A DNA stretch of 64,000 bases from Beverwykella pulmonaria (taxonomy: Eukaryota > Ascomycota > Dothideomycetes > Pleosporales > Melanommataceae): positions 1,991,035 through 2,055,034 of the forward strand of contig BCHH01000010.1 of the NCBI GenBank assembly GCA_001599595.1, given 5' to 3'. Below, piece by piece: positions 14,454 through 42,392 of this stretch. Position 1 is the stretch's first letter; each line of letters opens with the position of its first letter. The notes beneath the pieces are model-generated. The model was not told where the DNA came from. It made no database searches and was given only the letters and a program-made list of their open reading frames with translations. A program made the position numbers and the translations under genes.

Positions 14454-14473
14454 TACAAGATGTCAAAGTTTAT

Positions 14474-14894: not shown

Positions 14895-15030
14895 TATCAG
14901 AGTGCGCGGTCACGTTATATGGACGAGATAAATCAGGGCTGGATATATATGCTCGTCGACCCCCATAGCTTCTAAATCAACTCAGTCCCTGATTTATCTC
15001 GTCCATATAACGTGACCGCGCACTCCGATA
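14895..15030. mobile_element. MITE with 44-bp inverted terminal repeats and 5-bp target duplication
   Basis: Arms at 14895-14938 and 14987-15030 are inverted copies differing at one base (TATCAG versus TATCGG, then GTGCGCGGTCACGTTATATG and onward). The loop is 48 bp. CATAG stands immediately on both sides (14890-14894 and 15031-15035). There is no coding capacity, so it is a non-autonomous element. The transposon superfamily cannot be told from the ends. Confidence 0.8.
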
Positions 15031-15035
15031 CATAG

Positions 15036-18648: not shown

Positions 18649-18654
18649 ATCCAA

Positions 18655-22262: not shown

Positions 22263-22402
22263 TCTTTGATACCGACTGGTGGGAAAGAGGACAATGGAAT
22301 GGAAGCGAAGAGTCGAAGCATGGGAACAGCAAGCTCTTAATAAAATACCATGGTTAGTCGAATATGGTCATGCCGATAGGAAGATAAGAGATATGGCGCG
22401 TT

Positions 22403-23420: not shown

Positions 23421-24379
23421 AAGGAAATTTTGAAATTCAGTACGCACAACCATCCCAATAATATTCACACTAGCTCCACAAAGCAGCTGCATGTACGTTC
23501 CTATTCGGATAGCTTCTTACATCCTTCCAACCCGATCGAAGCCCTCAAGCTTAAGTGATGGATGGAAGGCCTGTTTCATCGCCTCAAGGATTTGACCGCA
23601 CGTGACGCGGACCACCTCAAAAAAATAGTACAAATTCTCATGTTGAGGAATAACTTTTACCAGCATGTGTGATTGCTAGGTTGCTTAGAGTATGAGGGAT
23701 ATTTGCAAGCTTTATTTCGTAAAGTATGCTAGCCAGTTTCGAGATAACGGCCAACATGCGCGATTTTCCAACAAGCTGTCTTTGCCGCAGATAGCTCTCC
23801 CAACACGGTATCAGAAATCCCTAAGCCAACGAGGCGCAGTCAGCAAGCGGGCTTATCTCGTTTGTCCCCAAAAATTGGACTAACTTGCGTTTGCCCTTTT
23901 TTAGCTTGAAATTTTCAACGTTAAGGCTTAAAAACATGCTTAGTTGTTGCGTTCCTGGTGTTTCGATTCCTGGCTTATGCAACTGCACTTTTTTTAATCC
24001 AAAATTTTCCCTTGAGTCATCTTATCCAAGGTAGATTCCTCTACCGTATTGTATCGCATCGCGCACGCCACACTGGATCCGTCTAAAGCTAATTTGTCAA
24101 CATGGCACATAAAACTTATATGCAGCTCTTATATTCCAAAGATCAGTGAGTGCAATAAGTATCTGCACGAGACATCGGGGGTACGGTACAGCTTGAGGCT
24201 TAGCAACCCACCCCTTGTAGAGCGCTGTCAAGAGAGCACTGACAGCTAGAAAATTCACCTTTACAAGCAAACTCGCTCCTATCTCTTCCACGTACACCTT
24301 TCCATTCCTACCAGCTCTTCTCGATGCCTCCGACTACAGGAACCGCACGAACATGATCCCTTGGCTCATTCAACCGTTA
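23421..24379. other. Gene-poor AT-rich spacer
   Basis: About 960 bp with short open frames only. Nothing was recognised. Confidence 0.4.
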
Positions 24380-24453
24380 AGTGGATGTGTCACTGACTAA
24401 TTAGGTCGTCATGTATATATCAGCTGTACAAACTTCACACCAAACATACATCT
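24380..24453 (-). repeat. TGTAAGC-family element, partial copy
   Basis: Has the core TGTCACTGACTAATTAGG, the ATGTATATATCAGCTGTACA block and a trailing CATACATCTTGATA, but no left terminus. It is directly next to the complete copy at 24459-24591. Confidence 0.6.
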
Positions 24454-24458
24454 TGATA

Positions 24459-24591
24459 TGTAAGCCGAGGACACCATAATGTCACGTGGATATGCCACTG
24501 ACTAATCAGTCCGTCACATATATATATCAGCTGTACATACATCACATACAATACACATCTGGACACCTTTTCCTCCGCCCTCCAGCTTACA
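24459..24591 (-). mobile_element. TGTAAGC-family element, complete copy with target duplication
   Basis: 133 bp from TGTAAGCCGAGG to CCAGCTTACA. TGATA stands on both sides (24454-24458 and 24592-24596). The core reads GTCACGTGGATATGCCACTG, ACTAATCAGTCCGTCA and TATATATCAGCTGTAC. There is no coding capacity. This is the best-preserved member and sets the ends of the family. Confidence 0.8.
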
Positions 24592-25031
24592 TGATATTCT
24601 TTCCTGTACCCTGCTGCTTACAATGATACTCGTAGAGCTAAGCAGAGCTCGCCTATGTCACGGATAAGTAATCTTGTTCAAGAATTAGATATTCTACAAT
24701 TGCTTACCAGTAATGATTGATTGGTCGAGCTTAGTATCGGAAGAAGTCTCAACGAAGAGGTCATCAGCAGAGAACTTGTTTCCTGAATTATTCCAATTAA
24801 AGTAACCATCAATCCCGGGTACTGCGGAACGACTCCGCTCACTTTACATAATCATTACGGTATAATTTATTAACGGTGACAGTCAGCACTAGGGCTATGC
24901 CGAGTCTTGGCAAGAGGGTCGACCTAAGCCTTGTAGTCTTGCGATCTAACCTCAACGCTTTACTCGATCGCCAAGCTCTTCCAAAGCAGGGAAGTATTCA
25001 ATAAATCCAAGTTCCTCCGTCTTATTTTAGC

Positions 25032-27123
25032 ATGAGCCTCTGCCATCTCTGCGCCTCTATCTCGCTGTCCAAAATGCGCGGTCCAAAGTTCGACCAAATC
25101 CAGCCCCATCAACCCAGCTATCTTGCACTAAAGAAGTCCGCTGAGGCAGGATGTCAGCTCTGTGGATTCTTCTGGGATGCCCTTGAGCAGGGGACTGGCA
25201 AAAATAGGACAAGAGGTGAAAACCGTGCAGCTGTATCTCATGTTTGCGAACGCTATCCAGGCCGCCAAATCTCACTTGCTGCCTGGGGCGGTCACGGGGC
25301 CACTCTTGACCGTATACACATCATCACCACTGGTGACATTCCAGAGGATGACGATGAAAATGCATCCGCAGATCCGACCATGCATCCTGATCATCAGTTA
25401 GCACTTAATGGTGTCGTCGATTTGTACGCTGACCCGGGTAACGAGCAATTCCTTCCTACCATTTACGGACTCGGATGCTTACATAAGTGATGTAGATGAC
25501 CCTTCTGCATGGCACGGGGAAATAGCTGGCAGGCCATTGCCGCTCTCCGCGGGTAATTCTGAGGAGGACTTCAGGCTGGCGCAAACGTGGCTGCAAGGCT
25601 GCTTTCACAACCACGCTACTTGTCCAAAGCCTGACCTAAGGACACCACTTCCAACCCGAATCATCGACGTCGGCCCTTATAATGAGCCAACTGAGCCATA
25701 TCTTCTCCATTCTAACGGAAGGAAAGGCTTATACGTTGCCCTTAGCCATTGCTGGGGGGGTAAAGTCCCTTTAACTTCAACTATTGCTACACTAGAGGAA
25801 CGAACCCAATCAATTCCTCTCCGGTCTCTACCCAAGACGTTTCGAGAAGCCGTGATTGTTACGCGAAGGCTTGGTGTAAGATATTTATGGATAGACAGCC
25901 TCTGTATCCTACAAGACTCCAAGGTCGACTGGGAGAAAGAATCAGCAGTCATGGGAGATATCTACACTTTCAGCTTCTTGACCATAGCAGCAAGAGGCTC
26001 CACAAACTCAGCAGGTGGGCTCTTTATCCCGAGAGAACCAGAGCCGCCTTCCTGCCACTTACAGTATGAATGTGCGAAGCATTCACTTTCCGGTTCCATG
26101 TACATTCGGTCTCCGGTCTTTCAACCCGAGCGACTGCGCGACACACCCCTAGACACACGTGGCTGGGTCCTCCAGGAGCGCTTGCTGTCGCCCCGAATCC
26201 TCTATTTTGGGCGGCATCAGCTCTACTGGGAGTGTGCCGAGGGTACGTTCCGTCAGGACGGCAAGGCTGCTGATGTTGCGACAGACGACCTACGGTCTGG
26301 CGTAAATCTTAAACAAGCTCTCGATTTTAACAGCCCTTTACCCTTCACCGATAACCCCACATTCTCACGGGATTACCACGCTTCTGACCTAACCCAATTC
26401 GAAAAAGGAGCTAGGTTGCTTCAATGGTACAATGTGGTTTCTGAGTATACCATCCGCCATCTGACCTACCAATCTGACAAGTTACCCGCTATATCCGGTA
26501 TTGCAAAAGCATTCCATAGGAGAACAGGATACACTTATTTGGCCGGACTATGGAAAGAGGACTTAATTGCCGGTATAGCATGGTCCGTCGTACAACCGAG
26601 CGACGAAATCACTTCCCCTACATTGCCCTCGTGGACATGGGCGCGCTTGAAAGTCAAGGTCCAATTCTGGAGTCAGGTGAGAGGCTTGCCTCTTAAAACC
26701 CTTGATGGATCTTGCGAAATGGTCCAGGTAACGCATACGCTTGCTTGCGGGTACAATCCTTATGGTGACATCAGAGACGCTGAGCTGCAGGTCCGAGGTC
26801 GACTCATCAAGGTAACCTATAGGCCGTCTCAGTCACCAGACGACGAATTTCAGACAACGGTATTCTCAATAAGTGGTGTACCAATAGGACGAGTCCAATT
26901 CGACTTGAAGTCTTCTGAGTCCCAGAAGATACGCTCCTTCTCCTGCGTTCTGATTCATGGCGGCGATAATTATGCAGCGGCTTTGGCGCTAGAATCAGCA
27001 GCGGACGCTCGCTTAAACTCTTATAAGAGAATCGGATACGTATCCATGATGTCAGTTAAGTGGAAAACCCAAGGCAAAGCAGCATTCAAGGAGGTGGCAC
27101 CTCGCATCATATCAATCATATAG
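25032..27123 (+). CDS. HET-domain protein (heterokaryon incompatibility type)
   Basis: HET proteins trigger cell death or growth arrest after fusion of unlike fungal strains. The N-terminus has a Cys pattern (MSLCHLCASI, GCQLCGFFW). The HET domain shows YVALSHCWGG, VRYLWIDSLCILQD, AVMGDIYTFSFLTIAARG and then TRGWVLQERLLSPRILYF with FGRHQLYWECAEGTFR. The C-terminal part has LPAISGIAKAFHRRTG and GIAWSV...LPSWTWA, usual in this family. Two frames meet near 25430. A 64-bp GT-AG intron at 25424-25487 (donor GTACGC, acceptor CATAAG) joins them in frame; if it is not spliced, the gene has a frameshift. With the intron, the protein is about 675 residues. A decayed second HET gene lies 0.3 kb downstream. 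Confidence 0.85.
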
Positions 27124-27333
27124 AAAATCCGAATTCTCGCCACCAACCCGAACTTCGACACTTTACTCAACAAAGCCCGCAGAACGCTTCCACTTTACCA
27201 TATCTCATCTTGGCCGGCTTGATGGTGTAGCATGTTTGCTCACCCTACTGCTAATATACTCTCCTCTCAAACATCTACTAATACGACCATAGCCTGACAG
27301 CTGGGATCATACCTTTGACCATGACTTTGGTTT
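27124..27333. other. Short spacer between the HET gene and the repeat
   Basis: No coding similarity is visible. The missing 5' part of the HET pseudogene is not found here. Confidence 0.4.
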
Positions 27334-27463
27334 TGTAAGCAGGGTGTGGGTAAAAGGGTATCAAGATGTGTATTGTGTGTTAGGTATGAACAGCTGATGT
27401 ATATATGACGGGGCTGATTAGTCAGTGGCATATCCAAGTAACTGTATAGTGTCCTAGGCTTGC
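27334..27463 (+). repeat. TGTAAGC-family element at the HET pseudogene edge
   Basis: 130 bp from TGTAAGCAGGGTG to CCTAGGCTTGCA, with the core GATTAGTCAGTGGCATATCC. Flanking 5-mers (GGTTT, GAAGG) differ, so there is no target duplication. Recognisable HET sequence begins within a few bases of its right end. Confidence 0.7.
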
Positions 27464-28222
27464 AGAAGGAGTGTTCGCTTCGGCCTACTGCACGATCGCT
27501 GCAACTTCAGCTGTCGATTCGAACGCGGGATTCCTTAAGCGGAACGTGTACATTGAGAATGTTTACGTTCAAGATTGCTCAGGTCGGTGATTCTATGGCT
27601 GCGCCGATACAGATTATTCCAACAACCATACTGATATAGACGATTTCAACGACCACGTAGAAAAGGCTCCGCTGAACACTCAAGCATGGGTGATTCAAGA
27701 AAGGGTTTTGTTGCGACGAATAATGCATTTAAGCAACAAGTAGATGTTTTTGGAGGTGTAGTAAGGAGCTGTACTGCGAAACTCTTTTAATATTGGAAAG
27801 GTAAGAGATCAACATTATGTGAGAGCCTAACATCATTCTAACCCGGACATTTTCTTCCTCAATTCCTTTGGAAAGAAGGTTTTCATGCTCGATTCAAACT
27901 TTCCGGACCGGCTCCTCCGATCAGGCCATCAATGTACCATAGAATTCATCCACTTTCTTTTTAAGGAGTACTACGCGACAGCCATCGTACAACTTCGCGA
28001 TCCGGTGAAACATACGGCTATTGCAACGTCGCAGACTCGCCTAAAACAAGATCATCACATCCCACCGCCTTGGAGTCTCGCTGTCCGCCAACCGATGAGA
28101 AGCTCTTTGCGCAGGCCCCTGGGTAATCGCGCTCTTCAAGGACATCTGGGTTGGAATGCAAGGCGAAAAGCAGAGACTAAACTAGACTACTGCTTAGTCC
28201 GTAACCAAAACAGCAGGAGGTA
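27464..28222 (+). pseudogene. 5'-truncated, decayed HET-domain gene
   Basis: The remnant begins with GVFASAYCTIAATSAVDSNA, then a stop near 27588, then LNTQAWVIQERVLLRRIMHL followed by a TAG where a Gln/Glu-type codon is expected and LEV in place of the usual WEC. More HET-like C-terminal sequence (FPDRLLRSGHQCTIEFIHFL) is in frame from 27885. The 5' half of the domain, including the SHCWG motif, is absent. Multiple stops show it is not functional. It is a paralog fragment rather than a duplicate of the intact gene upstream, since the two differ at most positions that I can compare. Confidence 0.75.
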
Positions 28223-29426
28223 ATGATATCCATACCTGATCGTCACCTGATTGAATTCACGTTCTTTAGCGACGGACCTTTCTCCATGGCTACCAAAGGC
28301 TGAGTCGGTATTCCGGCCCTTCACAATCGATTCCACGAACTTCCGCGGAATATTACTCGATAAGAATTCCCTCATGTCAATCGTGAAATCTATCACCGGA
28401 TTTTTGAGTGGGAAAACGAACTAAGAAGTCTCAGGCACAGTCGGGAAGGCGATGACCAGTAGCTGTGAAATTCCAGGAAGCCGTAGGCTATTCCCTGGAC
28501 GTGCACTATGGAAGGAATGATTTCTTTAATGACGACGCTAGCCGGTTGGCTCCTGTAGTTGTGGTCATGTTGGCTGCGATGTTTCAATCGCCGATATGGC
28601 CTTGGATACCCTGGGTAACAGGCATTGTATTTGTTGTCGTCAGGCCTGGAGGTACTTGAGTGGAATCTTCGAAATCATTAAACATAGGACGTTGACGGTA
28701 CCCTACTTTCGTGACACTAATAGTCACGTCCTCTGACCTTCTAGTAAATGCCTGCACAACGTACGGAAATCTGGTGTTTGACGCACGATATCTGACCATC
28801 CCTCGTACGCGTCATCAGTTAAAGTCCCACTCAAAGCGACATGCAAATTAATTTATCGATACCGTTCGCCCTACCACGGACATTTTGATTGTGTCCTCAC
28901 GATAGGGAGTGGTCTGTATATGATGAAATGCGGAGAATCTACCTTAATAGCTACCAATAAGTGAATGTCGCACAGTCCTACGCTACAGAGCTGCTTGTTA
29001 GAATACTGATGGATTGAATCTTCGTCGAAATCTGCCTCATATGCATAATCCTACATGGGAAGTTGCTCTGCTCTATGAAACCCAGTAAATGAGGCGCGCA
29101 AACCCAGGTGCACACTTAGTGGACCGGAGTTCGCACAATGGCGGGTAATTTTCCGCATGTGACCTCACTTCCGCAGCACAACACATCGGGCTTGATGAGC
29201 CATGCGTACATGTTACAAGGAACTGCCACTTTCAATATAAGATATTATATAAATTTATATATGGCTCATATCGAGAAGGTCTGAAGAGCGACCTACAACC
29301 GGCACTGTGCTGGTTGAGGCCCTCTTTCATAAGTAGTTAAGGTGTGCAAAAGCCAAGAAAGATCATCAATGGTTAACCCTACAAATTATATGCTTCAAGA
29401 TACCTACTCTACCTCACTGGTTGTTC
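28223..29426. other. Gene-poor stretch after the HET relic
   Basis: About 1.2 kb with no recognised gene. Frames at 28465-28800 on both strands are short and lack motifs. Confidence 0.4.
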
Positions 29427-30958
29427 ATGATGGCGTTCCCTATTTTGGTCGGCATCCTCAGCCTCGCAGGGTGGGCAGTAGCTGCAGTAGTTCAAAACTG
29501 TAAGTCTAAGGGCCATGTCCACCATTTCTTAAAACATCTAACAATAAAGAATTAGTAGCACAGATGACTTCGAGCCTGTCATTCGTCAACTCAACGAGTT
29601 CTACGCCAGTGATAACCACACCACCGAGTATCCCGGCTATCACCCTTCCCCCCTTACCTCCTGATTTCAACGACATTCCACTCAATATCCTGGAATGCTA
29701 CGACTCATGGGCGACTGCCAGAGCAATCAATATATTTGTCGAAGACCAATTTTACTCACTGGCATCCTCCACAAAACTAGCCACTCCATATACACGCCCG
29801 TACCTAACTTCGTGGTTATATGATGCGTGCACTACAAGAGCTTATACGGGTCAATATACCACACTGTGCGATGGCTTTGCCAGGAACCCCGAGCGAAGAG
29901 AAGAGGTTGATTGCAAAAGCGTAACGTCAGTGTACGAAACGGAAGAGACCATGTATTGGGAGACTGTTATCCCAGAGTGGATATCGAGATGGAGCGCAGA
30001 AAATACTGTCAAAATTCCAAGCTGTACGCAGGCACCAGATAGGGAAAAGCTATGCTATAGGTTACATTCAGCCTGGAACTGGCGGTCTGGTCAGGCCGAG
30101 GCATCAGCGTCCGCTAATATCACTCAAACTCCATGGTATATTCTTAGCGCGGAGAAGCCAACGTGCCAAACCTTGAGAAGAACACCACCGGCGAATCTGA
30201 CTACGAAGTCTTGCCAATTTAATGTCGATAATTACGAGGTGTATTACTGGCCTTCTGCTCCGCTAACAGGATCGTTCTTCTGCATGCCTAATGTTACTCG
30301 CCATGCAGGAGGAACGCGCACTATTCCCTGGCTTCCAAACACAGCGGTTGTGTCTGGATTCACTCTTACAAGTCCCTCCATCTACCATTTTCTCAAGGGA
30401 GTGGGGGTGTCGACATCTATTGGCGCACAGCGAGCAGGAAAATATGGGATATCACCCGTATACAACATATCTTCATCGATCGCTCCCGACACTATTCTGA
30501 CTTTTCCCCAAGAAGAATCTGACGTTTGGGTCGTCAAGCCAACTCGTACGGGACGTGGCCTCCATGCACATTGGGAATACCAATATAGAAACGGCACGTA
30601 CAACGCCGATGCTATGGCTACCGTGCAATCGGCGGCCTACTTTGACGCCTGCCGACGCCGATATCTCTGTCAAGGGGACGATAAGACGATCTCTCAAGCG
30701 CACTATCGGCAGGACGCTGCGCTATCTATAAAGGATGTCCTAGATGAGTGGGACAGCGATGAATTTCAAGACTGCAACTGGAGCAGCCAGTATTATCAAC
30801 AAGGACCTTGGCATGATAGAGTGGATATGTGGATTGCTCCCGGTGAACCGTGGAGAGCAATACCAATCGTAACGGATGATGAAGATGAACCCGAAGCTAC
30901 ACGGGCGGCAAAACCAGCATCAACTATTCACGATCCGCCAACTCAAACAGGGGGCTGA
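29427..30958 (+). CDS. Secreted cysteine-containing protein of unknown function
   Basis: Exons 29427-29499 and 29556-30958 flank a 56-bp intron with a CTAAC branch site and give 491 residues. Exon 1 encodes a signal peptide (MMAFPILVGILSLAGWAVAA). The mature part has a Ser/Thr/Pro-rich start and scattered Cys residues (ILECYDSW, DACTTRAY, TLCDGFA, PSCTQAP, KLCYRLH, PTCQTL, SFFCMP, DACRRRYLC, FQDCNW), which suggests several disulfides. Several N-glycosylation sequons are visible. There is no recognisable catalytic motif and no C-terminal membrane anchor. It lies just outside the catabolic block and is convergent with the MFS gene. Function unknown. Confidence 0.75.
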
Positions 30959-31427
30959 GTACCAGATACGACGGAAAATCGATGAGCCTGAATGATACTT
31001 GTTTTTTTTACTTTGCGGCGGAGACCGGTAGTATATTAGGAATTAGTTTAGGATTCGGTCGAAACAAAACCGTTCAGTCGCTGTCTGCTCCCCCAAAAAT
31101 GTTAAGGTATCACACTTCACGTAAATTTACGAAAGCTCAATCACTGATTGTGGGTATATACTATTGATATATGTGGGAACTAAGAGCGGCGTAAAAATCT
31201 GATGAGAATTTGATGAAAACAAAGCCTAACCAGGCCTTCGCCCATTCAAGTGATTAAACTTCCAACTCAGATCCTAATCGCCAAATTAACCCCCAATCAT
31301 TGCAACCAATACACAAAGGTTTGTATTGTCTTTGCAATTACTGAAGTAGTACCAATAAAAGCACTCTTCAAATATTTACTATCTTCCCTAGAATACCCTA
31401 GATTCTACTCTAGTTTCACCTAAGTGC

Positions 31428-33095
31428 CTAAGTAAAGTACCTCCACATCTCGCTCCTCTCCCCATCCTCCAACTTCCCCGTATTAACTTCCTCCGGTCTA
31501 ACCCTGACCCCCTGCTGCCTATCCCTTTTCTGGTTCTCCATTTTCATCCAAAACCCCAATCCTAATGTCGTGCAAATGCATACCACATTGCATACGGCAG
31601 TCGCCGCAAGCGTAGGAACGTACTTGGGCGCATACTCTGTTCGAAACGTCGCCGCTGACAATATGCCACCAAGATTTCCGAGACCGACTAAGAGGCCGGT
31701 GGTCGCAGCGCGAGAGTTCTCGTTGAGATTGTTATTGTTGTGCCAGCTGTGCACGAGACAAGATGGGATGTAAGCGCCGCCCGCGAGGAGGAAACATGCA
31801 AAATATGCCACGCCCTTATTATGCAGGACGTCAATCGTGGCTAACACAATCAACCCCACCAAACTTAAGCATAAACTCCCAACAATATGAAAAGTCCTCT
31901 CCCTAAAGAAATCCGAGCTCTTCGCTACACAAAGCAGGATGACAAACCCCACTGCATTCGGCGCCACAGTCCACAGGTTCGTCTTCACGACACTGTACCC
32001 TAACCGCGCGACAATTTGAGGGAGGAAGTTGGATGTCGTGGAGAAGGCGACTGGGTACGTGAAGGAGATGATGCACCAGGGGATGAATTTCCAGTTTGAC
32101 CAGGATTGGAAGCATTCTTTCATGTTGAAGGAGGAGTGTGATTTGGATGAAGAATCTCTTAAAGTGCGTTGGGAAGCGGCGGTGCGCTCGGTCTCGCTGA
32201 GGAACCAGGCTGTGGTTGGGGAAGAAGGGAGCCAGAAGTATGCGATTACGGCGACGAGGACGGTCATGGCACCTTGAGTTATGTTAGACTGGGTACGGCT
32301 TTGAGGTGATTGAAATTTGGCTTACCTTCAATGATAAACAACCATTTCCACCCCTGCACCTGCGGGTTATGGATCTGGAACACACTATAGCTGATCAACC
32401 CACTAAACGCAGCAGCCAGCAGCGCGGACCCAAAGAAAATTGCGATACGGAAGCCAAGTTCACCACGCGTATAAAATAGCGTAAGATAAAACACCACACC
32501 GGCGAAGAAACCAGCCTCAAATGCTCCAAGAAGGAGACGTAGGACCAGCATGCCGGCAAAGTTGTGGGCTGCGCATTGGAGGAGCGCGCAGGAGCCCCAG
32601 CCGAGCATCACTATATACACATTTGAATTAGCGCTCGGCTTTCGCAAATAATAAGGTTTAAAGAAGGAAACTCACGATTCGGAAGCATGATCTTCCCGCT
32701 CCATTTCGCTGTCAACATGTTCAACGGCAAATCGCACAATCCATTCGGAACATAGAATAGCAGAATCAACAAACTGTACTGTTCGCCCGTGAACCTGAGA
32801 TCTTTGTCCATGCCATCGGTTTTCGCGTTGCCGAGATTGGATCGGTCGACAGAGTTGAAGAAGTACATCAGCGAGAGGAAGGGCAGGAGGTACATATCCA
32901 TCTTGCGGACTACGTGATGTCAGCTATGCGCTTTTTGGGATGAAGAAGGGGAGAGAATGACTTGCCATAGGCGCGCTCAGCAACTGTATCAATCCACTCC
33001 TCTGAATGCCCAATCTCCTGTCCCTTCTCATTATCAATTGAAGTATTGCTCAAATTTTTGCCTTTGTCTTCATCGACGATGGTTTGGGACTCCAT
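31428..33095 (-). CDS. MFS transporter of the allantoate/nicotinate permease (Dal5/TNA1) family
   Basis: This is a plasma-membrane carrier for organic anions. Minus-strand exons 33095-32966, 32909-32676, 32610-32326 and 32272-31428 join to 497 residues. The first intron uses a GC donor (GCAAGT ... CACGTAG). Family marks are RKMDMYLLPFLSLMYFFNSV, DRSNLGNAK, LRLLLGAFEAGFFAGVVFYL, WKWLFIIEG and the loop WLPSSPTTAWFL. The ORF upstream of the ATG at 33095 has no other ATG. Being next to an aromatic monooxygenase, an amidase and a cyclic-imide-type hydrolase, it is the likely importer of the substrate, comparable to HxnP or HxnZ. I cannot tell which of these it resembles more. Confidence 0.9.
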
Positions 33096-33927
33096 CGCAA
33101 GTATATTCCACAATACTGGACTGCGACAAGAGCGGCGATAGCCCAAGGTTGTGTATCGAAGTCGGAATTTCGACAAAATGGATGCCTGTGACCAAATCTA
33201 ATATTGTCATTCTCAATCCTTGCTTATAACCATCTCAATCACTCGCCCCACACCCATTAATCAACCGCAGGCCCCATATGATTCTCAGCCCATTACCTCT
33301 TCTATCCATTACGACTCGAGCTGGGAGCGCAGCCGACACGCCGATCGCCATCTACATTCCTATCATAGGGAGATAGACAGCGATATGAGCGGAAGACAAA
33401 GGTGGGGGATCTCAAGGTAGTACGCTAGATTTGTAAGGGTTAGCGTTCCAGAGAAAGGGGATGGAGATGGAGAACAGCACTGGGGCAAGAGATTGAGTAT
33501 GGAGAACAGCGGCGAGAACTCGTGACCATGTGTTCATATTAATGTTGAACGTGGTATTGAAGGTGATGATGGGGGTTCGCAAAATATTGTGATCATTTTG
33601 ACTAGCCATTAGGTGGACGAAAGCTCGATCATTGATCGATGCCATGGAGGTCTAAATGTTACAAGTGCGTTAAGAAAACTGCAGAAAGGTGGAATAGGCG
33701 TCATTACACGGCTTATAGACTACGTGGGGCTTTTTGATGAAGACGAAGTAGATAAGAGGTGTACATCCAACTATCTAGTTTCTTAAATATTAAAATCACA
33801 GCGCCGGTACAATGATTATCTACCACCCGTCCAAACCCCCATCTGGATCCCTCTATCAACCTTGTGTCCCTAACCTGTATCCTGAGCCTCTATTCCCAAC
33901 CGCTAACCCGAATTTTTATCCCAACCC
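33096..33927. other. Promoter region of the MFS gene
   Basis: About 830 bp between the 3' end of the monooxygenase gene and the start of the MFS gene. No coding sequence was recognised, and no TCCGCGA copy of the kind noted at other cluster promoters was seen. Confidence 0.4.
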
Positions 33928-36125
33928 TCACACGTCGCGTAAAAACTGACTATAATAGTCATCCATCCAATTCACCGCACTCAACCCACTTTCACGACTC
34001 CCATCCACCCACCTCCTCAGCGTCCCAACATACCCATCAGGCCTTACATTCAACACAACCACCTCATTTACCGCTAAGCCACCCAGCCACTTATCAAAGC
34101 ACGTTTGCCTGCGAGTGTCTTTGTGTGCGCAGTCGTCAATGTAAAACGTCCACCTCGAGTCTCGCAAGACAGTAGGAAGCTGGTCGATCTCAATATTGTT
34201 ACGGTCCATGTCTGTCACTAAGGCGTAGGTGAATGTTCCGCTGACGGGAGTGTATCGCTCCGGGCAGACAAACTGGTCGTGGGGGGCAGCAAGTGGGGGT
34301 TGAATCGTGTGAGAGGCATTGCTAGCAGCGGAAACGCGTCCGACATAGGAGGCTTTCGATGAATGCGCGCTGGATACAGTTTCTAAGAATGGCATAGCGG
34401 CATGGACATTGCGAGCGAAGAAATAAATTCGGAACTGGCCAAGAGCGGGGATATCGGTTTGGATGTCCACAGGATTGGCATCGATGAACCGAGTGACCTT
34501 TGCTGGGGGAAGCAGGTAGCCTGATTGCAGAGACCCAAGACTGAGGTGCTGAGTGGGTACGTTTAGGACATTGGAGTCGTAGTTGACACCATAACCGGAA
34601 ATGAATGCAACATTCTTGGCAAAGTTTGCGGCGAGGGCTGCGGGATCACCGGCAGCGAATGCGTTGGCATGCTCGTAGTCGAAGTTGATGAGGTCCTCAG
34701 CGATCTTCTTCCGCTCCTGTTCATACGTTTGGAGAAGGCTTGGCTTGGCAAGACCACGGACAGCGAGGTTCAACTTCCATGCAAGATTCCAGGAGTCGTG
34801 CATGGAGGTATTCATTCCTTGTGCAGCTTTCGGCGAGTGTGTGTGGCTAGCCTGAGTGATGTTAGCGATGGGCAGGAGAAAAGAGTGTGAGTAGTGAGAC
34901 ATACATCCCCGGCAATGAAGACGGTCTGGTCGTCATCTGTGAATCTTGCGGCGACTCGCTGGCCGATTTGATATCGCCCAAACCACTCTGAACACAATTA
35001 GCTCCTAACTTCCGGCATGTTGTAGAGCAACTCACCGACGGAGCTCCATTTGACTCTGTACGGACGCATGATCTCTTGCGCTCGCTTCTGGACAAACTCC
35101 TGAGTGTGTCGCTCCTTCATGCTGGTCTCCGCCGAGCCCGGCTTCAGCTCGATGTATAGGCGCGTCATGTTTCTCTCGCGCGGGATCATCAGCACCGACC
35201 CAAGCTCATCCGAATGCACGACAACTTTGCTCCAAATGTCCGGGAAGTCGGTGTCCAGGACACCATCCAACACACCCCACACAGCATCCGACGAGGCACC
35301 CACAGGTGTCGAGTAGGGTATTTGCTTCCGCACCAGAGAGTGTGCTCCGTCGCACCCGACCAAGTACCGAGTTCCATACGACTTTCTTATAATCTCGTCC
35401 TGGTTGCAGTGGACAGTAAGGGGTCGAAGTTTCTGAGGCGTGTATTCCATGTTAACAAATGCCATACGGCGCTCCACCTTAACTCCTCGCTCTGAAAGAT
35501 CGTCAATGAAGATGTCTTCCACCATGCCCTGGTGTACGAGTAGAATGTAGGGATCGAGAAGGTCTACGACGGGCGGGTAGTGGATTTCTCGACCAGTGCG
35601 ATGCATTGGCTTATGGGCTGTGGATTTCTGAGCGTAGGATTGTGAGCAGGGTCTGGAGAAGACATAATGGTCGAAAAGAAAACCTACCCAGAAGGCAATG
35701 TCGTATATCTTCACGCCCTTCCGTAGCAACGGCTCGGCCAGACGCATCTGTCGCAGCGTCTCGATTGACTTGGGCTGGATGCCATCTGCCCTGCCTGTCG
35801 AGGTCCGATCTGGGCGGTTGTCGATGATGCGAGTCTTGATTCCAAAGCGCACGAGGTTGTCCCTGCTCCTGTCAGTCATATGCCAGCTCGTGGCCAGTCC
35901 CTAGACCTACGCAAGCATAAGCCCCGACGGACCGGCACCGACAACCATGACATCGCTGAGGAAGCTCGAGTAGTCCTGCTCGCCGGCGAGAGGCGGGGCA
36001 GAAATGTCGAGGGTGTGGGAGGAGTTGGAGTCGTTGGTAAGGCCGGGCGCCATCTTGGGGATCTTAGGGAGAGGGGGGCTGTTGGAGGTAGTGCGCTTCA
36101 TGAAGGACATGAATGCGCAACACAT
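33928..36125 (-). CDS. hxnV: Phenol 2-monooxygenase-type FAD hydroxylase (HxnV-like)
   Basis: This is a class A flavoprotein monooxygenase that hydroxylates an aromatic or hydroxypyridine ring using NAD(P)H and O2. Minus-strand exons 36125-35911, 35862-35688, 35627-35036, 34987-34905 and 34851-33928 give 662 residues. The intron at 35628-35687 is 60 bp and in frame; removing it restores DIAFW-KSTAHKPMHRTGRE. The FAD-binding motif is VVGAGPSGLMLA, the DG motif is YLVGCDGAHSLVRK, and the GD motif is VFIAGD-ASHTHSPKAAQG after splicing. The C-terminal 170 residues match the thioredoxin-like tail of the phenol hydroxylase family. In-frame ATGs at 36110, 36101 and 36053 are possible later starts. 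It is divergent from the amidase over a 532-bp shared promoter. In the hxn pathway, HxnV acts on a dihydroxypyridine; that role is inferred from context here. Confidence 0.9.
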
Positions 36126-36657
36126 GGTATAAGACGTGTGCTCCCTATGTGTGGGAGGCTAGGGCTGGAAAATGGGGGTGTGGTGGAGGGGCAAGATCGC
36201 GCATCTGCCCCGTTTGCAGTGCCATTGAGCGTGCATTGAGGGTTATTGAGATGTTGGCGGACAAAGCGGGTAGAAGTCGTGTCTGAGTTTTCAGTCGATG
36301 GGGTGACATTTTGGCTGAATGTGGTTGTTCGTGCAGGACACGCTGAAGTCTGGGGCAGGGCAAGGGCAGGGCGATGGCAGGCGGCCCTTGGCGTCGTGAA
36401 GCTTGAGCGGCCCCTGCGTCGCACCCCCACTGTTCCATCTCCAACCTAACCCAGCACCAACACGGCATCCCGACATCTCCCTACGCATGCCGGTGTCTGT
36501 GCGGATCAATCCCGGCCCAGCTCGGCATATCGCGGATTTGTTATGGTTGTTCTGATACCAGTAGTGCCATGGACAAAACTCAACATGGGACAACAACGTC
36601 GAGCGTTGAACTAAGTATTGTGAATTTCGCCCCACAACACCATCCGTCAATGCCAAC
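36126..36657. promoter_or_regulatory. Shared divergent promoter of the monooxygenase and amidase genes
   Basis: This 532-bp spacer serves two divergently transcribed pathway genes. It contains TCGCGGA (36530-36536). The same word in the other orientation, TCCGCGA, occurs in the promoter of the NodB-type hydrolase. It is a candidate regulator site, but nothing here proves binding. Confidence 0.45.
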
Positions 36658-38668
36658 ATGACCACCTTAACTGAGCCCAAATGGCTACAGACGGCTAACG
36701 AGAAGCGCCGCATTCGCGATGAAGCTATCCAAAAATACAATAACGGCCATGAGCCTGCAGGCTCCACCGGAAATAGCCCTTCTCGCGACGCGACGAGTAT
36801 CGACAAGGTCGACGAGATTCTCCAAGCCATCTCCTCTGGCGCTGTAAACGCTGCAGCGCTTTGTGATGCGTACATTGGCCGGTAAGCATCGAAACCGATG
36901 GACACAGATTTTTCAATCATGGAACGATGCTCACGCCACATGTCGCAGGGCTGTTGCCGCTCATCGTCGTGTAATTCTTCCTTGTGTCTCCACCTCTCAT
37001 CTCTCCGATACGGTCTTGCTGACTGCTGCAGACAAACTGGCACGTATTCACGTTGATTGGCGAGATATGCCGAGGTTACTGACCTTGTATCAGCCTCACA
37101 GAAGTTCTTTTTGACGATGCTCTGAAACAAGCAAAGGCGCTGGATCGATTTTTCAAAGAGCATGGACGACTTGTGGGGCCTCTGCACGGTGTTCCCATGA
37201 CGCTAAAGGACCAGTTCGATGTTCAAGGATACGATAGCACCCTCGGGTATGTCGGGAGGGCCTTCAAGCCAGCCAAGCAGGACTGTGTTATCGTGGCCCT
37301 GCTAAGGCAGATGGGAGCCGTCATTATCGCCAAGTCCAATCTGCCGCAGAGCATCATGGTAGGGCGAGGCGCTCAAATCCGCACTCGAGTCAAGCTTACC
37401 ACTCAACAGTGGTGCGAGACAGACAATCCTCTCTGGGGACGGACAACTCATCCGCGAAATTCCGATTTCACCCCTGGCGGGTCTACCGGCGGTGAAGGGA
37501 CGCTTTTACACCTGCACGGCTCTGTCGTCGGGTGGGGCACTGACATTGGCGGCAGCATTCGTATACCATCACATATGCTGGGTCTATTCGGGTTGAAGCC
37601 AAGCGTAAGTCGTGATCCGGAGCCGAAGTTCCCTCCGATTTGCCAGCTACCATTCTGGTGGATGCCTCTACCCCTTTACAACAGCTGATTGCGTGAATAG
37701 AGCACCCGTCTGCCATATCACAACGTCTCAGTGTCAACCGAAGGCCAGGAACATGTGCCCTCTGTAATTGGACCCATGAGTCGGAATGTCGAATCGCTCA
37801 TTTCAGTCACCAAAGCAGTCATCGATGCAGCCCCATGGAACCTGGATCCAAAGTGCTGTCCCGTGCCTTGGAGAAGTGACATGTTCTCCGATGTTCAGTC
37901 TCGGCCCCTGGTAATTGCTGTCATGCGTGACGATGGAGTGGTCAAGCCTCATCCACCTGTGAGTCGCGTGCTAGAAGAGATTGCGACCAAGCTGGGAAAC
38001 GCCGGACATGACATGGTCGAATGGACACCCGGAAGTCTTCACCAAGAGTGTATCGACATCATGGTACGTTTTCCACTCCTCAAATCCAAGCATGAGACTA
38101 AATGGACATGCAGGATCAATACTACACCGCCGATGGGGGGGAGGACATCAAACGCGACGTTGCAGCTGGAGGCGAACCTTTCATCCCGCATGTTGAAGCT
38201 CTTGTAAATAAGGGGAAAGCCATTTCGGTTTACTCTTACTGGCAGCTGAACAGGCAAAAGCTGGCTGCACAGAAGCGGTTCCTCGATTTGTGGAACTCTA
38301 CAGTGTCGCCAGCCTCAGGCAGGCAGATTGACATTCTCCTCACGCCAGTGATGCCGCATTCTGCAGTCCCTCATCGCAAGTGCAGGTGGGTTGGGTATAC
38401 AAAGGTGTTCAACTTCGTCGATTATCCAGCGGTAGTACTTCCAGCTGGCCACGTCTCGAGAGACCTTGACAGCGCGAGCGCTACAGAGATGGCATCTTAT
38501 AAGCCTAGAAATCGGCTCGATGTTTGGAACTGGGGCAATTTTGATCTCGACGCCATGGATGGCATGCCAATAGGAGTACAAATTGTCGCGAGAAGACTGG
38601 AGGAGGAGAAGGTGCTCAGTGCTGCCCAGGTCGTTGACTCTGTACTTCGGGGCGTGAAGACGCCGTGA
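36658..38668 (+). CDS. hxnN: Amidase signature-family hydrolase (HxnN-like)
   Basis: Seven exons: 36658-36881, 36949-36970, 37032-37039, 37094-37358, 37410-37604, 37701-38063 and 38114-38668, giving 543 residues, the usual length for fungal acetamidase-type enzymes. The third exon is 8 nt; with it the protein reads AVAAHRR-TN-CLTEVLFDDA as the family expects, and without it the frame is lost. The catalytic Lys is in VPMTLKDQ, the cis-Ser in GGSTGGEG and the nucleophile Ser in GTDIGGSIRIP. The intron at 37359-37409 is in frame and 51 bp. The intron following the micro-exon has a GC donor. In the hxn pathway, HxnN hydrolyses the amide left after opening of the cyclic imide; the adjacent NodB-type gene fits the preceding step. 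Substrate not provable from sequence. Confidence 0.9.
37032..37039 (+). other. Predicted 8-nt micro-exon of the amidase gene
   Basis: The exon sequence is ACAAACTG. The upstream intron 36971-37031 runs GTAATT to CTGCAG. The downstream intron 37040-37093 runs GCACGT to TATCAG. It supplies Thr-Asn and the first two bases of Cys. Confidence 0.7.
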
Positions 38669-39048
38669 GCACTCGAAATATGTACACTCACCGGGATACA
38701 CTCTGCAAACACACTTCACGTTAGTATGTCTCTATGGAACAACATAAATCCGACGACTTTGCCCCTCCAGCGGGAGCTAATGCAGCATCTCGCGACAAGT
38801 AGCCGACGGCTGGGATCGATGATTCGGTTTACCACCCCCACCTTCCAGCGTCCGGCGCTGCTTCCTCGTGCAATGTGGGTCCTGGAAGCTAAGAGAGGGG
38901 CAGATGCTCCATAGCTCCTGCTGTTTGTTTGCTATCCGCGATTTTTGCACCGCCTTTCAGACCCTCTCACTCGCTGGTGTCCGTCTTCTCCAGTCCGCGA
39001 AATCAAGAGTATCAGCAGCCACCCTAACTCTGCTCATTCAAAAGAAAA
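38669..39048. promoter_or_regulatory. Promoter region of the NodB-type hydrolase gene
   Basis: 380 bp between tandem pathway genes. TCCGCGA occurs twice, at 38935-38941 and 38995-39001, 108 and 48 bp before the ATG. The first copy is part of TATCCGCGATTTTT. Confidence 0.45.
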
Positions 39049-40160
39049 ATGGGCAAGAAACGCGTTTTGGTAAGCTATGGCGTTGATATCGATGCTGTGG
39101 CGGGGTGGCTTGGGTCGTATGGCGGGGAAGACTCGACCAGCGACATCAGCAGAGGTGAGCTCCTTCCGTGTCGCAACCCAACTCCCATTGACAGGAACAG
39201 GTCTTTGGGCGGGCACTGTAGGAACACAGCGCCTACTAAAGCTATTCGACAAATACAAAATCAAAGCGACGTGGTTCATTCCAGGTGAGTCTTCTGCAGC
39301 GTCTCCCCCGACCCATAGCTGAGATTTCCAGGCCACTCCCTCGAGACCTTTCCTGAAGACTGCGCTGCCGTCCGCGACGCAGGCCACGAAATCGGGCTCC
39401 ATGGCTACTCTCACGAGAACCCCGTAGACATGACCTTCGAGCAGCAGCGCGACGTCCTGGACAAAACCTACAAGATGCTCACCGAATTCACTGGCAAGCC
39501 ACCGCGGGGCAGCGTTGCGCCGTGGTGGGAGACATCCAAGGAGGGCTGCGATCTTCTCCTCAGTTACGGTATCGAGTACGATCATAGCATGTCGCATGAG
39601 GACCACAGGTGCTACTGGTTGCGCACGGGTGACCAGTGGACTAAGATCGATTATAGCAAGAAGGCCGAGGAATGGATGAAGCCGCTTATTCGCGGCGAGG
39701 AGACGGGATTGGTGGAGATTCCGGGGTCGTGGTACATTGATGACCTGCCGCCGATGATGTTCATCAAGAACTCGGCCAACAGCCATGGTTGGGTCAATCC
39801 TAGGGATGTCGAGGCGATATGGATGGACCATTTTGATTACTTCTACAGGGAGTACGATGAGTTTGTTTTCCCCATGACGATTCATCCCGATGTGTCAGGA
39901 CGACCGCACGTTATCCTCATGCATGAAAGGTAGTCTCGCTCCTATACATGCCTATTTTCCGGGCAAAGCTGATAAAAAGGACATGCAGAATCATCGAACA
40001 CATCAACAAGCACGAGGGCGTAGAATGGGTCACAATGGAGCAAATGTGCGACGACTTTAAGAAGAACAACAAGGTGCCCGAGGGCGCGAAGATGCCAGCA
40101 CCGCCGGGCGAGATTCTGAAGAAACAGGCAGAGGAGGCAAAGGCAGCAGGCAAGGCGTAG
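39049..40160 (+). CDS. hxnM: NodB-fold polysaccharide deacetylase family hydrolase (HxnM-like cyclic imide hydrolase)
   Basis: Exons 39049-39154, 39195-39284, 39332-39929 and 39989-40160 (introns of 40, 47 and 59 bp) give 321 residues. The metal-binding triad of the fold is visible: Asp in [12 protein letters not shown] and the two His of [27 protein letters not shown] and the late [16 protein letters not shown] are also typical. There is no signal peptide, which argues against a cell-wall chitin deacetylase. The bacterial cyclic imidases and the fungal HxnM belong to this group of non-secreted NodB proteins. Placement right after an amidase supports imide ring opening followed by amide hydrolysis. 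The C-terminal tail is Lys/Ala-rich. Confidence 0.85.
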
Positions 40161-40803
40161 TTCGCTTGCGTTCGAAGTATACAGGCAAATATAATGCTTT
40201 CCGATGCTTTTACGGGCCACCAATGTTTGCGACCGCCATCGATAGCCTCATTTTCTACACTTTGTACTGATTTTTTTCCCATCGTCGGAACGCGTTCAAA
40301 AAATAAACCACCGCCAATTATTACCCCGATGCCGCCTCGGAGGATGATCTTTGGCTCCCGTACCCCTCGCCTGACATGCTCCCCCACTCTTGCAGGCTTA
40401 GTTCTTACGGTCTGCCGGACAAGATCACCGCCCCAAACACGTCTATCGAGCCAATAGGGCAGGCTAAAGCTCCGTGTTACCGCACCTCCGTATCTCCACT
40501 CCTGCCACCGGAGCTGTGCCGGCGCAGGGCTAGGTCGATAAGATTCGAGCGATGCCACAGCTACAGGAGTCGCGTGCAGATGTACGAGGGTGGGTATCCG
40601 CGGGCTAGAATGGCGGCAATTGACCTGGACTCTCACTCTTGGTCGAGAATGGTGAGGAGAGAAAGGCAGACATATACTTGTCTTTCATTGCTGAGCACCG
40701 TCGAGCTTTTTTTTGGTCTTTAACGTACGCAATTGTCGGTTCCGCAAGCTCAGTCGAGCGATTTCAGCTTATCAAACTAGAGGTGTGAGACGCTGACATC
40801 ATC
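40161..40803. promoter_or_regulatory. Promoter region of the salicylate-hydroxylase-type gene
   Basis: 643 bp between tandem pathway genes. TATCCGCG lies at 40595-40602, about 200 bp before the ATG, and shares ATCCGCG with the other cluster promoters. No gene was recognised. Confidence 0.4.
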
Positions 40804-42392
40804 ATGGCCCCTCCCGCAAAGCCCGAGATCTTGCAGAAGCAACACAGAGCTCCAGAAGACCAACTCCATGTAGGCACCTCCATATCATCTTCCTCTCCTC
40901 TCTTTCCCCTCCTGACGTTCCCCAGGTCATAGTAGTAGGCGCCGGTCTCGGCGGTCTCGGAGCCGCCATCTCCATCCTCCTCTCCGGTCACACCGTACTG
41001 ATCCTCGAATCCGCGCCCGAAATCGCCGAAGTAGGCGCCGGCATCCAATGCCTCCCCAACTCAACCCGAGTCCTCATCGCATGGGGCATGGAGAAAGCGC
41101 TCTCCGAACAAGCTACGCGGCCTAAGCAATGTAACATGCTCGGATGGAAGGGCGAGCAGATCAGCTACATGGACTTCCACGAGTACGAAGAAGAAACCGG
41201 GACCCCGTTTTGGGACTTCCACCGCGCGAGCCTGCACATGGGCCTTCTTGATCGCGCGGTCGAACTCGGCGCCAAAATCGAAACAAATTCCCGCCTCGTG
41301 GACATCGAATACGCATACTCGCCCGACGGGTCGCAAACACAAGCGACAGTCATCCTCGCCAACGGAACCCGGAGAACAGCGGATTTGGTCGTCGGCGCGG
41401 ACGGGATTAATTCAAGGTGCAGAGAATTGTTGTTGGGGAAACCCGACCCCCCGATCCTGACGGGGGATCTAGCGTATAGGTTGCTTTTGAAGACGGAGGA
41501 TATGCTCAAGGATGAAGATTTGAGGAGTTTTGTTGAGGATCCGCAGGTCAATTATTGGCTAGGACCTGATGCTCATGCCGGTATGTCTTCCATCGCTCCT
41601 CTGCGAAGAGAGAGAGAGAGTGTGTGTGTGTGTGTGTGTGGAGGGCTTTGCTGCTGACGTAGTGCAGTCAACTACGTCCTTCGCGGCGGCAAACTCTTCA
41701 ACATGGTCCTCCTCGTTCCCGACGACATGCCGGCTGGCGCTAATACACTCGCCGGCAACGTGGACGAAATGCGTGCACTTTATAAAGACTGGGATCCGCG
41801 GATCCCGAAACTGCTCGCTCTCTGCGAGTCCGTGTACAAGTGGCGATTATGCATTCGCCCTGGTCTAGATCCCACCTGGTCCCATGACAGTGGCACGTTT
41901 ACCATCCTCGGAGATGCAGCCCATGCGACGCTCCCATATTTAGCGTCCGGCGCGGGCATGAGTCTGGAGGATGGACATGTGTTAGGTTTATGCCTGGGAC
42001 GTGCGAAGGGGAGGAGCAATAGGGCGAAGAAAGAAGCGTTGGAAGTGTACGAGCGTTGTCGGAGGGAACGCACCGAGCGTGTTGTGGGACGGGGGAATTA
42101 CCAGCAGCACCTCTACCACGTACACGACGGCTCGGAGCGCGATGAACGGGATAAATTACTCAAGACCTTTGGGGAGTTTAATGGAAGGGGAAAAGTGGAT
42201 GAAAAAGTGTTTAGGGAGCTAGGACTCGAGGAAGAGAGCGATCCGCTGCCCTGGCGGTGGGGAGGCGTGGGGAAGTGGTTGCTTACGTATGATTGTGAAG
42301 TGGACGTTCGGAGGAAGTGGGATGAAGTTGAGAATGAGACGAGGGGTGGAATAGGGGGTGTGGGCGAAGAGGCAGTTAGGGCAGTGTTGTAG
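40804..42392 (+). CDS. hxnX: Salicylate hydroxylase-type FAD monooxygenase (HxnX-like)
   Basis: Exons 40804-40869, 40926-41580 and 41668-42392 give 481 residues. This is a class A flavoprotein monooxygenase: GxGxxG motif VIVVGAGLGGLGAAI split by the first intron, the DG motif DLVVGADGINSRCRE and the GD motif TILGDAAHATLPYLASGAGM. Family members decarboxylate and hydroxylate aromatic acids such as salicylate; the bacterial NicC and fungal HxnX act on 6-hydroxynicotinate. Context with the other pathway genes makes 6-hydroxynicotinate the leading candidate substrate. It has no signal peptide and is presumably cytosolic or peroxisomal. The C-terminus shows no clear SKL signal (ends ...AVRAVL). 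The second intron contains a GA/GT microsatellite. Confidence 0.88.
41609..41640 (+). repeat. GA/GT dinucleotide microsatellite in an intron
   Basis: A run of GA repeats followed by GT repeats inside the 87-bp second intron of the hydroxylase gene. Length may vary between strains and could affect splicing. Confidence 0.85.

What the first reader, a model, noticed from the sequence alone, without database searches (positions are those of the whole stretch)
31428..42392. Probable hxn-type nicotinate catabolic cluster
Seen: within 11 kb lie a Dal5/TNA1-type carrier, a phenol-hydroxylase-type monooxygenase, an amidase, a non-secreted NodB-fold hydrolase and a salicylate-hydroxylase-type monooxygenase, all with intact key motifs. 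Known: the A. nidulans hxn system uses exactly these classes (HxnP/Z, HxnV, HxnN, HxnM, HxnX) to turn 6-hydroxynicotinate into hydroxyglutarate through a cyclic imide. Inferred: this is that pathway. The side-by-side order V-N-M-X is compact, while A. nidulans has these genes in separate groups. hxnT, hxnW and hxnY equivalents are not in the window, so they lie elsewhere or the route differs.
Basis: partly seen in the sequence, partly recalled or inferred. Interest (0 to 1): 0.85.

Follow-up and report, generated by a model that had tools for sequence, protein, structure and literature searches.

The report
Fungal nicotinate-degradation gene cluster
This stretch of a fungal chromosome holds much of the known gene set for using vitamin B3 (nicotinate) as a nitrogen source; it looks like a further example of a published system, here split into two blocks, so mostly ordinary.

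Summary
Beside it lies an hxnR-type regulator (5534-8768). An hxnT-type gene begins 110 bp outside the window, divergent from hxnS. V and N form the published divergent couple hxnV-hxnN. Relatives of R, V and X share a contig length in 16 cases; locus tags in eight genomes put two or three of them 1-6 tags apart. The predicted HxnR site GHGGGG is enriched upstream (17 against 6.6 expected).

Differences: ~22 kb of other genes (NRPS-type, HET, exchanger) separate T-S-R from carrier-V-N-M-X; hxnW, hxnY and hxnZ were not located, by weak tests; X lacks a canonical peroxisomal signal and ends in RAVL, a tail common in its relatives. The V-N-M-X neighbourhood is not new in kind: hxnM and hxnN within the cluster are published for Pezizomycotina other than Aspergillus. 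New member of a known kind; modest interest.

The parts
303..4862 (+). hxnS candidate: nicotinate hydroxylase (xanthine-dehydrogenase type), 1501 aa, one 54-bp in-frame intron (4314-4367)
   Evidence: Pfam Fer2, Fer2_2, FAD_binding_5, CO_deh_flav_C, Ald_Xan_dh_C, MoCoBD_1/2; FATAL at 1160-1164 followed by His1165, Ile573, Pro1104, Ser1233-Gly1234, against FTALF, Tyr and Ala-Ser in the genome's other XDH, L009; signature from PMC5746545
5534..8768 (+). hxnR candidate: pathway regulator, 935 aa, 4 introns, two C2H2 fingers + PF04082
   Evidence: zf-C2H2 and Fungal_trans; model; two C2H2 fingers and aromatic pair Tyr244/Trp246; 389 relatives, 120 listed; next-best region in own genome 31%
31428..33095 (-). 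MFS carrier, 497 aa; HxnP-like by length and position only
   Evidence: MFS_1 on one exon; model; two GHGGGG sites upstream. Membership of the cluster is inferred
33928..36053 (-). hxnV candidate: 2,5-dihydroxypyridine monooxygenase, 638 aa
   Evidence: FAD_binding_3 + Phe_hydrox_dim; Asp74, Lys240, Leu252, Ile254, Tyr264 with the spacings given for HxnV; PDB relatives 8r2u, 1pn0, 2dkh
36054..36657 (.). 604-bp divergent intergenic region hxnV/hxnN with 4 GHGGGG sites
36658..38668 (+). hxnN candidate: amidase, 543 aa (HxnN of A. nidulans: 543 aa)
   Evidence: Amidase PF01425; model; best PDB relatives are fatty acid amide hydrolases, Lys and Ser motifs aligned
39049..40160 (+). hxnM candidate: cyclic imide hydrolase (CE4 fold), 321 aa
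   Evidence: Polysacc_deac_1; best PDB 3qbu (HpPgdA) 441 bits; 58-67% identical to the 80 bacterial and archaeal loci kept of 125 relatives
40804..42392 (+). hxnX candidate: 6-hydroxynicotinate 3-monooxygenase, 481 aa, C-terminus RAVL
   Evidence: 8 of 8 residues that PMC9304392 lists for HxnX present; relatives share contig lengths with hxnR relatives; canonical PTS1 absent
8769..31427 (.). ~22 kb stretch separating the two hxn blocks: ORF without Pfam match above cut-off (9006-10166), NRPS-type AMP-binding and Condensation ORFs (10420-13029), alpha/beta hydrolase, Na/Ca exchanger, kinase-like ORFs (below cut-off), HET-domain ORF
   Evidence: not every ORF of the stretch was scanned

Best explanation
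This is the hxn (nicotinate utilisation) locus of a fungus whose nearest listed relatives are Pleosporales. Inferred from A. nidulans: a carrier brings in nicotinate or 6-hydroxynicotinate; HxnS hydroxylates nicotinate to 6-hydroxynicotinate; HxnX replaces its carboxyl group by a hydroxyl to give 2,5-dihydroxypyridine; HxnV hydroxylates that to 2,3,6-trihydroxypyridine; HxnT reduces the ring; a ketoreductase (HxnW, not located here) makes 3-hydroxypiperidine-2,6-dione; HxnM opens this cyclic imide; HxnN releases ammonium to leave alpha-hydroxyglutarate. HxnR switches the genes on. Shown here: gene content, order, open reading frames, diagnostic residues, enrichment of predicted HxnR sites, linkage in other fungi. 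Inferred: substrates, regulation, localisation.
For: HxnS signature at the five positions tested, absent from the only other PF02738 gene found in the genome. hxnT-type OYE divergent from hxnS, 412 bp between start codons. HxnR-type regulator next to hxnS; its aromatic pair (Tyr244/Trp246) lies in a motif found in 81 of 120 listed relatives. hxnV-hxnN divergent couple as published. Residue spacings of V equal those of HxnV. X matches HxnX at 8 of 8 listed residues; of 14 paralogous loci examined the best two match 4, though several are exon pieces that do not cover all eight positions. N has exactly the HxnN length and FAAH-type relatives. M is closest to 3qbu, as HxnM is. X and R relatives share a contig length in 50 of 120 listed rows each, and X, R and V (120 rows each) in 16. 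Locus tags: Plenodomus lindquistii V 004190, X 004193, R 004195; Coniothyrium glycines R 010260, X 010263, V 010266; pairs in six further genomes 1-4 tags apart. GHGGGG: 17 sites in seven upstream regions, shuffle mean 6.6, 0 of 500 shuffles reach it; nine control stretches hold 4 in 5.0 kb.
Against: hxnW, hxnY and hxnZ not located: 263 SDR candidates exist and only 18 were scored, none near the cluster; the dioxygenase nearest to the cluster (C10:1972418-1973606) is 16 kb beyond hxnT and closer to SpoC than to thymine dioxygenase. X lacks the canonical PTS1 that PMC9304392 says is conserved in HxnX; its nearest solved relatives are 4-hydroxybenzoate and vanillate 1-hydroxylases (354 and 279 bits), not NicC (149-151). 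The HxnT C-terminal Tyr is not at the distance published for HxnT; the HxnV Ile126 position holds Leu. AreA sites (HGATAR) are not enriched: 12 against 9.3 expected, 113 of 500 shuffles reach it. No A. nidulans protein was compared. The two blocks are ~22 kb apart.
Confidence: 0.9

Rival explanations
1. A hydroxybenzoate/vanillate (hydroxyquinol) aromatic pathway: X is a decarboxylating hydroxylase of the 4-hydroxybenzoate 1-hydroxylase type and V a hydroquinone or phenol hydroxylase.
For: Best solved relatives of X are 8gsm, 8x38 and 8r2t and of V 8r2u.
Against: An amidase and a cyclic imide hydrolase have no role in such a route; hxnS, hxnR and hxnT types are linked; no ring-cleavage dioxygenase family appeared among the ORFs scanned (not every ORF); X carries the HxnX residue set and V the HxnV spacings, though V's residues are not exclusive to HxnV.
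Confidence: 0.04
2. An incomplete hxn locus that no longer supports growth on nicotinate, because hxnW (and hxnY, hxnZ) are lost and the cluster has been split.
For: hxnW not located (weak test); published hxnM-hxnW couple not present here; ~22 kb of other genes between the two blocks.
Against: All eight gene models (S, R, T, V, N, M, X, carrier) are open, and S, V, N, M and X keep the catalytic or diagnostic residues examined, with the exceptions named above; GHGGGG sites occur upstream of genes in both blocks; A. nidulans itself works with three separate clusters (PMC8478523); hxnW may be unlinked.
Confidence: 0.12
3. X is a neighbour of the cluster and not the 6-hydroxynicotinate monooxygenase; the true HxnX is the paralogue at C12:449815-451014, which ends in the canonical PTS1 AKL and has 463 aa in its open frame (HxnX has 461).
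For: PTS1-like end and His/Tyr pair in L060; X lacks a canonical PTS1.
Against: L060 has Ser-Thr-Ala where HxnX and X have Val-Leu-Leu, and Ile for Val; it matches 4 of 8 listed residues against 8 of 8 for X. X relatives share contig lengths or neighbouring tags with hxnR relatives in Dothideomycetes and Sordariomycetes.
Confidence: 0.07

Closest known systems
hxn regulon of Aspergillus nidulans (PMC5746545, PMC8478523, PMC9304392)
   Same: hxnS with FATAL signature, hxnR with two C2H2 fingers, divergent hxnS-hxnT couple, HxnV/HxnN/HxnM/HxnX classes, GHGGGG sites upstream
   Different: One chromosomal locus in two blocks instead of three clusters; hxnM and hxnN next to hxnV and hxnX; hxnW, hxnY, hxnZ not located; X without canonical PTS1
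Single 11-gene hxn cluster of Cyphellophora europaea and clusters of other Pezizomycotina (PMC8478523)
   Same: hxnV-hxnN and hxnS-hxnT divergent couples; hxnM and hxnN within the locus
   Different: hxnW-hxnM couple not present here; ~22 kb of other genes between hxnR and the carrier next to hxnV
Clusters of Plenodomus lindquistii and Coniothyrium glycines (locus tags only)
   Same: V and X three tags apart, room for N and M between them as in V-N-M-X; R nearby
   Different: There R lies on the X side, 2-3 tags from X; here R lies on the V side, ~25 kb from V

Membership tests
hxn nicotinate catabolic system | HxnS: XDH paralogue with FATAL insertion, His after it, aliphatic at 478, Pro1008, Ser-Gly 1137-1138 | tested here: met
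   the other genomic XDH (L009) has FTALF, Tyr, Ala-Ser. Pro is at the published distance from FATAL, but the pairwise alignment puts Thr, the neighbour of a His, opposite it in L009. The published insertions in the Fe/S region were not tested
hxn nicotinate catabolic system | HxnR: two C2H2 fingers, NLS after them, PF04082, aromatic pair in the 208-239 region | tested here: met
   (VLNTRKRMWK against the published NLS VLETRKRMRRA, by eye); HxnR itself not compared
hxn nicotinate catabolic system | HxnT: old yellow enzyme with His and Asn three apart, divergent from hxnS | tested here: met
   His225, Asn228. The published C-terminal Tyr is not at the published distance (Glu there)
hxn nicotinate catabolic system | HxnV: Asp65, Lys231, Leu243, Ile245, Tyr255 and PHOX domains | tested here: met
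   Asp74, Lys240, Leu252, Ile254, Tyr264, domains; not exclusive to HxnV; the Ile126 position holds Leu
hxn nicotinate catabolic system | HxnN: amidase of FAAH type, 543 aa, divergent from hxnV | tested here: met
hxn nicotinate catabolic system | HxnM: cyclic imide hydrolase, closest to 3qbu, about 60% or more to bacterial enzymes | tested here: met
   (58-67% in the 80 loci kept of 125); AAY98498 itself not compared; unclustered HxnM paralogues also exist in fungi (PMC8478523)
hxn nicotinate catabolic system | HxnX: active-site residue set (Gln59, Val223, His232, Val234, Tyr236, Val247-Leu248-Leu249) | tested here: met
   8 of 8
hxn nicotinate catabolic system | HxnX: canonical PTS1, reported as conserved in Pezizomycotina HxnX (a property of that protein, not of the cluster) | tested here: not met
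   ends RAVL; canonical tripeptide in 2 of 50 relatives that share a contig length with R and 6 of 120 listed
hxn nicotinate catabolic system | HxnW ketoreductase present | tested here: inconclusive
   263 candidate SDRs, 18 scored, none near the cluster; no HxnW sequence at hand
hxn nicotinate catabolic system | HxnY and HxnZ present | tested here: inconclusive
   27 PF14226 matches, one 16 kb from hxnT; second MFS gene beyond hxnT
hxn nicotinate catabolic system | Predicted HxnR sites (GHGGGG) upstream of cluster genes | tested here: met
   17 against 6.6 expected, 0 of 500 shuffles; 4.35/kb against 0.79/kb in control stretches
hxn nicotinate catabolic system | AreA sites (HGATAR) upstream | tested here: inconclusive
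   12 against 9.3 expected, 113 of 500 shuffles reach it; none in the T/S, V/N and M regions
hxn nicotinate catabolic system | Reciprocal best hits or trees with A. nidulans Hxn proteins | not tested
   no hit named as an A. nidulans Hxn protein among the 120 listed in each
hxn nicotinate catabolic system | Co-induction by 6-hydroxynicotinate through HxnR | not testable with these tools
   needs expression data
hydroxyquinol (4-hydroxybenzoate/vanillate) pathway | Ring-cleavage dioxygenase beside the two monooxygenases | tested here: inconclusive
   none among the ORFs scanned, but not every ORF was scanned

The most novel reading that the evidence does not exclude
In Dothideomycetes and Xylariales the 6-hydroxynicotinate monooxygenase HxnX has a conserved non-canonical tail R-[A/P/S]-x-[L/I] in place of the canonical peroxisomal signal of A. 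nidulans (SRL), so the step that makes toxic 2,5-dihydroxypyridine is imported weakly, shared between cytosol and peroxisome, or moved out of the peroxisome.
Probability: 0.35. Interest if true: 0.4.

Novelty: new member of a known kind. Interest (0 to 1): 0.3.

Why it matters
It adds a locus with hxnS, hxnR, hxnT, hxnV, hxnN, hxnM and hxnX types on one stretch, and a clear case of a metabolic cluster divided by ~22 kb of other genes, useful for asking what keeps such clusters together. The shared non-canonical C-terminus of X and its relatives challenges the statement that the HxnX peroxisomal signal is conserved, and can be tested with a GFP fusion in A. nidulans.

Tried and rejected
Considered and rejected: a hydroxyquinol-type aromatic pathway (V and X have such solved relatives, but S, R, T, N and M do not fit); C12:449815 (L060, canonical PTS1) as the true hxnX (4 of 8 residues); the fused SDR-CE4 frame on C8 (L013) as hxnW plus hxnM: the Asn-to-Ser distance (36), counted by eye and by no script, differs from HxnW (28), so it is left as an observation; the dioxygenases at C10:1972418 and C12:1028364 as hxnY: PDB comparison does not single out thymine dioxygenase for either.

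Led nowhere: PF13561 survey for hxnW (18 of 263 candidates scored); NCBIfam on X, M and S listed only scores below cut-off; Pfam at E up to 0.5 on ten ORFs of the 22-kb stretch added nothing above cut-off; paper searches on non-canonical PTS1 tails and on hxnS in Dothideomycetes (listings only) showed no paper on the HxnX tail. Each of the three protein-database searches lists only its best 120 hits, so no tree with A. nidulans was possible. The first contig-length comparison held all 120 rows for X and R but 67 of 120 for V; one search repeated it with all 120 V rows: X-R 50, X-V 26 (25 before), R-V 23, all three 16. The one added X-V match, at 2,526 bases, is too short to hold both genes and is a coincidence, so short equal lengths can arise by chance. 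Of the 49 genome matches to X, twenty gave loci and 14 of these were examined for residues, several of them exon pieces.
Full report
What is there. The window lies at C10:1991035-2055034 of a 45.6 Mb genome in 31 contigs. The closest listed proteins to X and V come from Melanomma, Pleomassaria and other Pleosporales, so the host is probably a pleosporalean fungus. Domains are as described (of the carrier one exon was scanned).

A PF02738 search of the genome found two genes, one of them inside the window. Its ORF 288-4859 has the xanthine dehydrogenase domain set. PMC5746545 (abstract, passages and sections 2.2-2.4 read) gives residues that separate nicotinate hydroxylase HxnS from xanthine dehydrogenase HxA: an Ala inserted to make FATAL, His in place of Phe just after, an aliphatic residue for an aromatic one, Pro for His, and Ser-Gly for Ala-Ser. 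The window gene has FATAL-His, Ile, Pro and Ser-Gly; the other gene (L009) has FTAL-Phe, Tyr and Ala-Ser at the matching places; opposite the Pro the alignment puts a Thr that neighbours a His. Beside it, at 5534-8768, is a 935-aa regulator with two C2H2 fingers and PF04082, the architecture of HxnR, with a similar basic stretch after the fingers and an aromatic pair (Tyr244, Trp246) in a Y-x-W-L motif found in 81 of 120 listed relatives. 110 bp left of the window begins an old yellow enzyme on the minus strand (C10:1989480-1990924), divergent from hxnS with 412 bp between the start codons. Its His and Asn are three apart as in HxnT; the C-terminal Tyr is not at the published distance. hxnS-hxnT and hxnV-hxnN are named as conserved divergent couples in PMC8478523 (all of Results and discussion read); both are present here.

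The individual enzymes. V has Asp74, Lys240, Leu252, Ile254 and Tyr264, with the spacings listed for HxnV in PMC9304392 (all of Results and discussion read); the Ile126 position is Leu; these residues are not exclusive to HxnV. N has 543 aa, as HxnN has, and its nearest solved relatives are fatty acid amide hydrolases. M is nearest to 3qbu, as reported for HxnM, and 58-67% identical to the 80 bacterial and archaeal loci kept of 125. X has all eight residues listed for HxnX; of 14 paralogous loci examined, some of them exon pieces that cover only part of the positions, the best two have four. Against this, X is nearer in sequence to 4-hydroxybenzoate and vanillate 1-hydroxylases (354 and 279 bits) than to bacterial NicC (149-151 bits), and it ends in RAVL, not in a canonical peroxisomal tripeptide.

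Linkage elsewhere. Each of the searches with X, R and V lists 120 hits. X and R lists share 50 contig lengths, R and V 23, X and V 26 (one a coincidence), and 16 are shared by all three. Locus tags agree in eight genomes: Plenodomus lindquistii V 004190, X 004193, R 004195; Coniothyrium glycines R 010260, X 010263, V 010266; Pleosporales sp. CAS-2024a X 007371, R 007374; Neocucurbitaria cava R 003771, V 003774; Didymella pomorum R 008327, V 008329; Diplodia intermedia X 000554, R 000558; Stylonectria norvegica R g400, X g401; Parahypoxylon ruwenzoriense R 001302, X 001303. A ninth, Neocucurbitaria sp. VM-36, has X 053430 and R 053370. The two tags between V and X in the first two genomes leave room for N and M, which is inferred. 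So X goes with the hxnR type in two classes of fungi, and a V-N-M-X order may be ordinary in Pleosporales.

Regulation. GHGGGG, the predicted HxnR site (PMC8478523), occurs 17 times in seven upstream regions (two MFS genes, T/S, R, V/N, M, X), at least twice in each; dinucleotide shuffles give 6.6 +/- 2.4 and 0 of 500 reach 17. Nine control stretches hold 4 in 5,037 bp. GNGGDG: 38 against 26.1, 7 of 500 shuffles reach it. HGATAR (AreA) is not enriched: 12 against 9.3, 113 of 500 reach it. The HxnR site is a published prediction, not a measured one.

What differs from known clusters. (a) Between hxnR and the carrier/hxnV block lie ~22 kb with NRPS-type ORFs (AMP-binding, Condensation), an alpha/beta hydrolase, a Na/Ca exchanger, kinase-like ORFs below cut-off and a HET gene. 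In Plenodomus and Coniothyrium R is 2-3 tags from X. Here R lies on the other side, so an insertion and a rearrangement seem likely (inferred from tags only). (b) hxnW, hxnY and hxnZ were not located; the tests were weak. A second MFS gene (C10:1985502-1987197, 527 aa) lies beyond hxnT; by length alone it resembles HxnZ (533 aa) and the carrier in the window HxnP (491 aa). (c) The tail of X: 98 of 120 listed relatives have Arg or Lys at -4 and Leu, Ile or Met at -1, most often RAVL (39) and RANL (10); a canonical PTS1 in 6 of 120, and in 2 of the 50 that share a contig length with R. PMC9304392 states that the PTS1 is conserved in Pezizomycotina HxnX. PMC12316961 (passages read) describes working non-canonical tripeptides such as ANI, so the tail may still be a weak signal. 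Some tails may be wrong gene models.

Verdict. The hxn interpretation is supported (0.9). It is a new member of a known kind. The parts worth following are the tail of X and the split of the cluster.

Noticed in passing
L013 (C8:2216555-2220184): A short-chain dehydrogenase and a CE4 hydrolase related to M (38% and 47% identical stretches) run on in one open frame, apparently a fused SDR-cyclic-imidase-like protein; the two activities would be consecutive steps of an hxn-type route. The SDR part was recognised by eye, not by a family scan.
   Followed up: partly
L012/L014 (C12:1028541-1032401): A second M-like CE4 gene (47-50% identical) faces a 2-oxoglutarate dioxygenase that is the genome's best PF14226 match.
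   Followed up: partly
window 9006-13029: NRPS-type ORFs (AMP-binding, Condensation) between hxnR and the V-N-M-X block; whether one intact gene or remnants is not settled.
   Followed up: partly
window 36949-37093: The amidase gene seems to have an 8-nt exon flanked by a GT-AG and a GC-AG intron; the carrier gene also has a GC-AG intron.
   Followed up: partly
window 44000-52000: AT-rich stretch with few long ORFs (38-45% G+C in 2-kb steps) right of hxnX; the S-R and V-X blocks are 52-55% G+C, the carrier 48%.
   Followed up: no
P0226 (Aureobasidium melanogenum): A database protein joins PF00724 (OYE) and PF04082, probably hxnT and hxnR run together by annotation, which suggests that they are neighbours there.
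   Followed up: no
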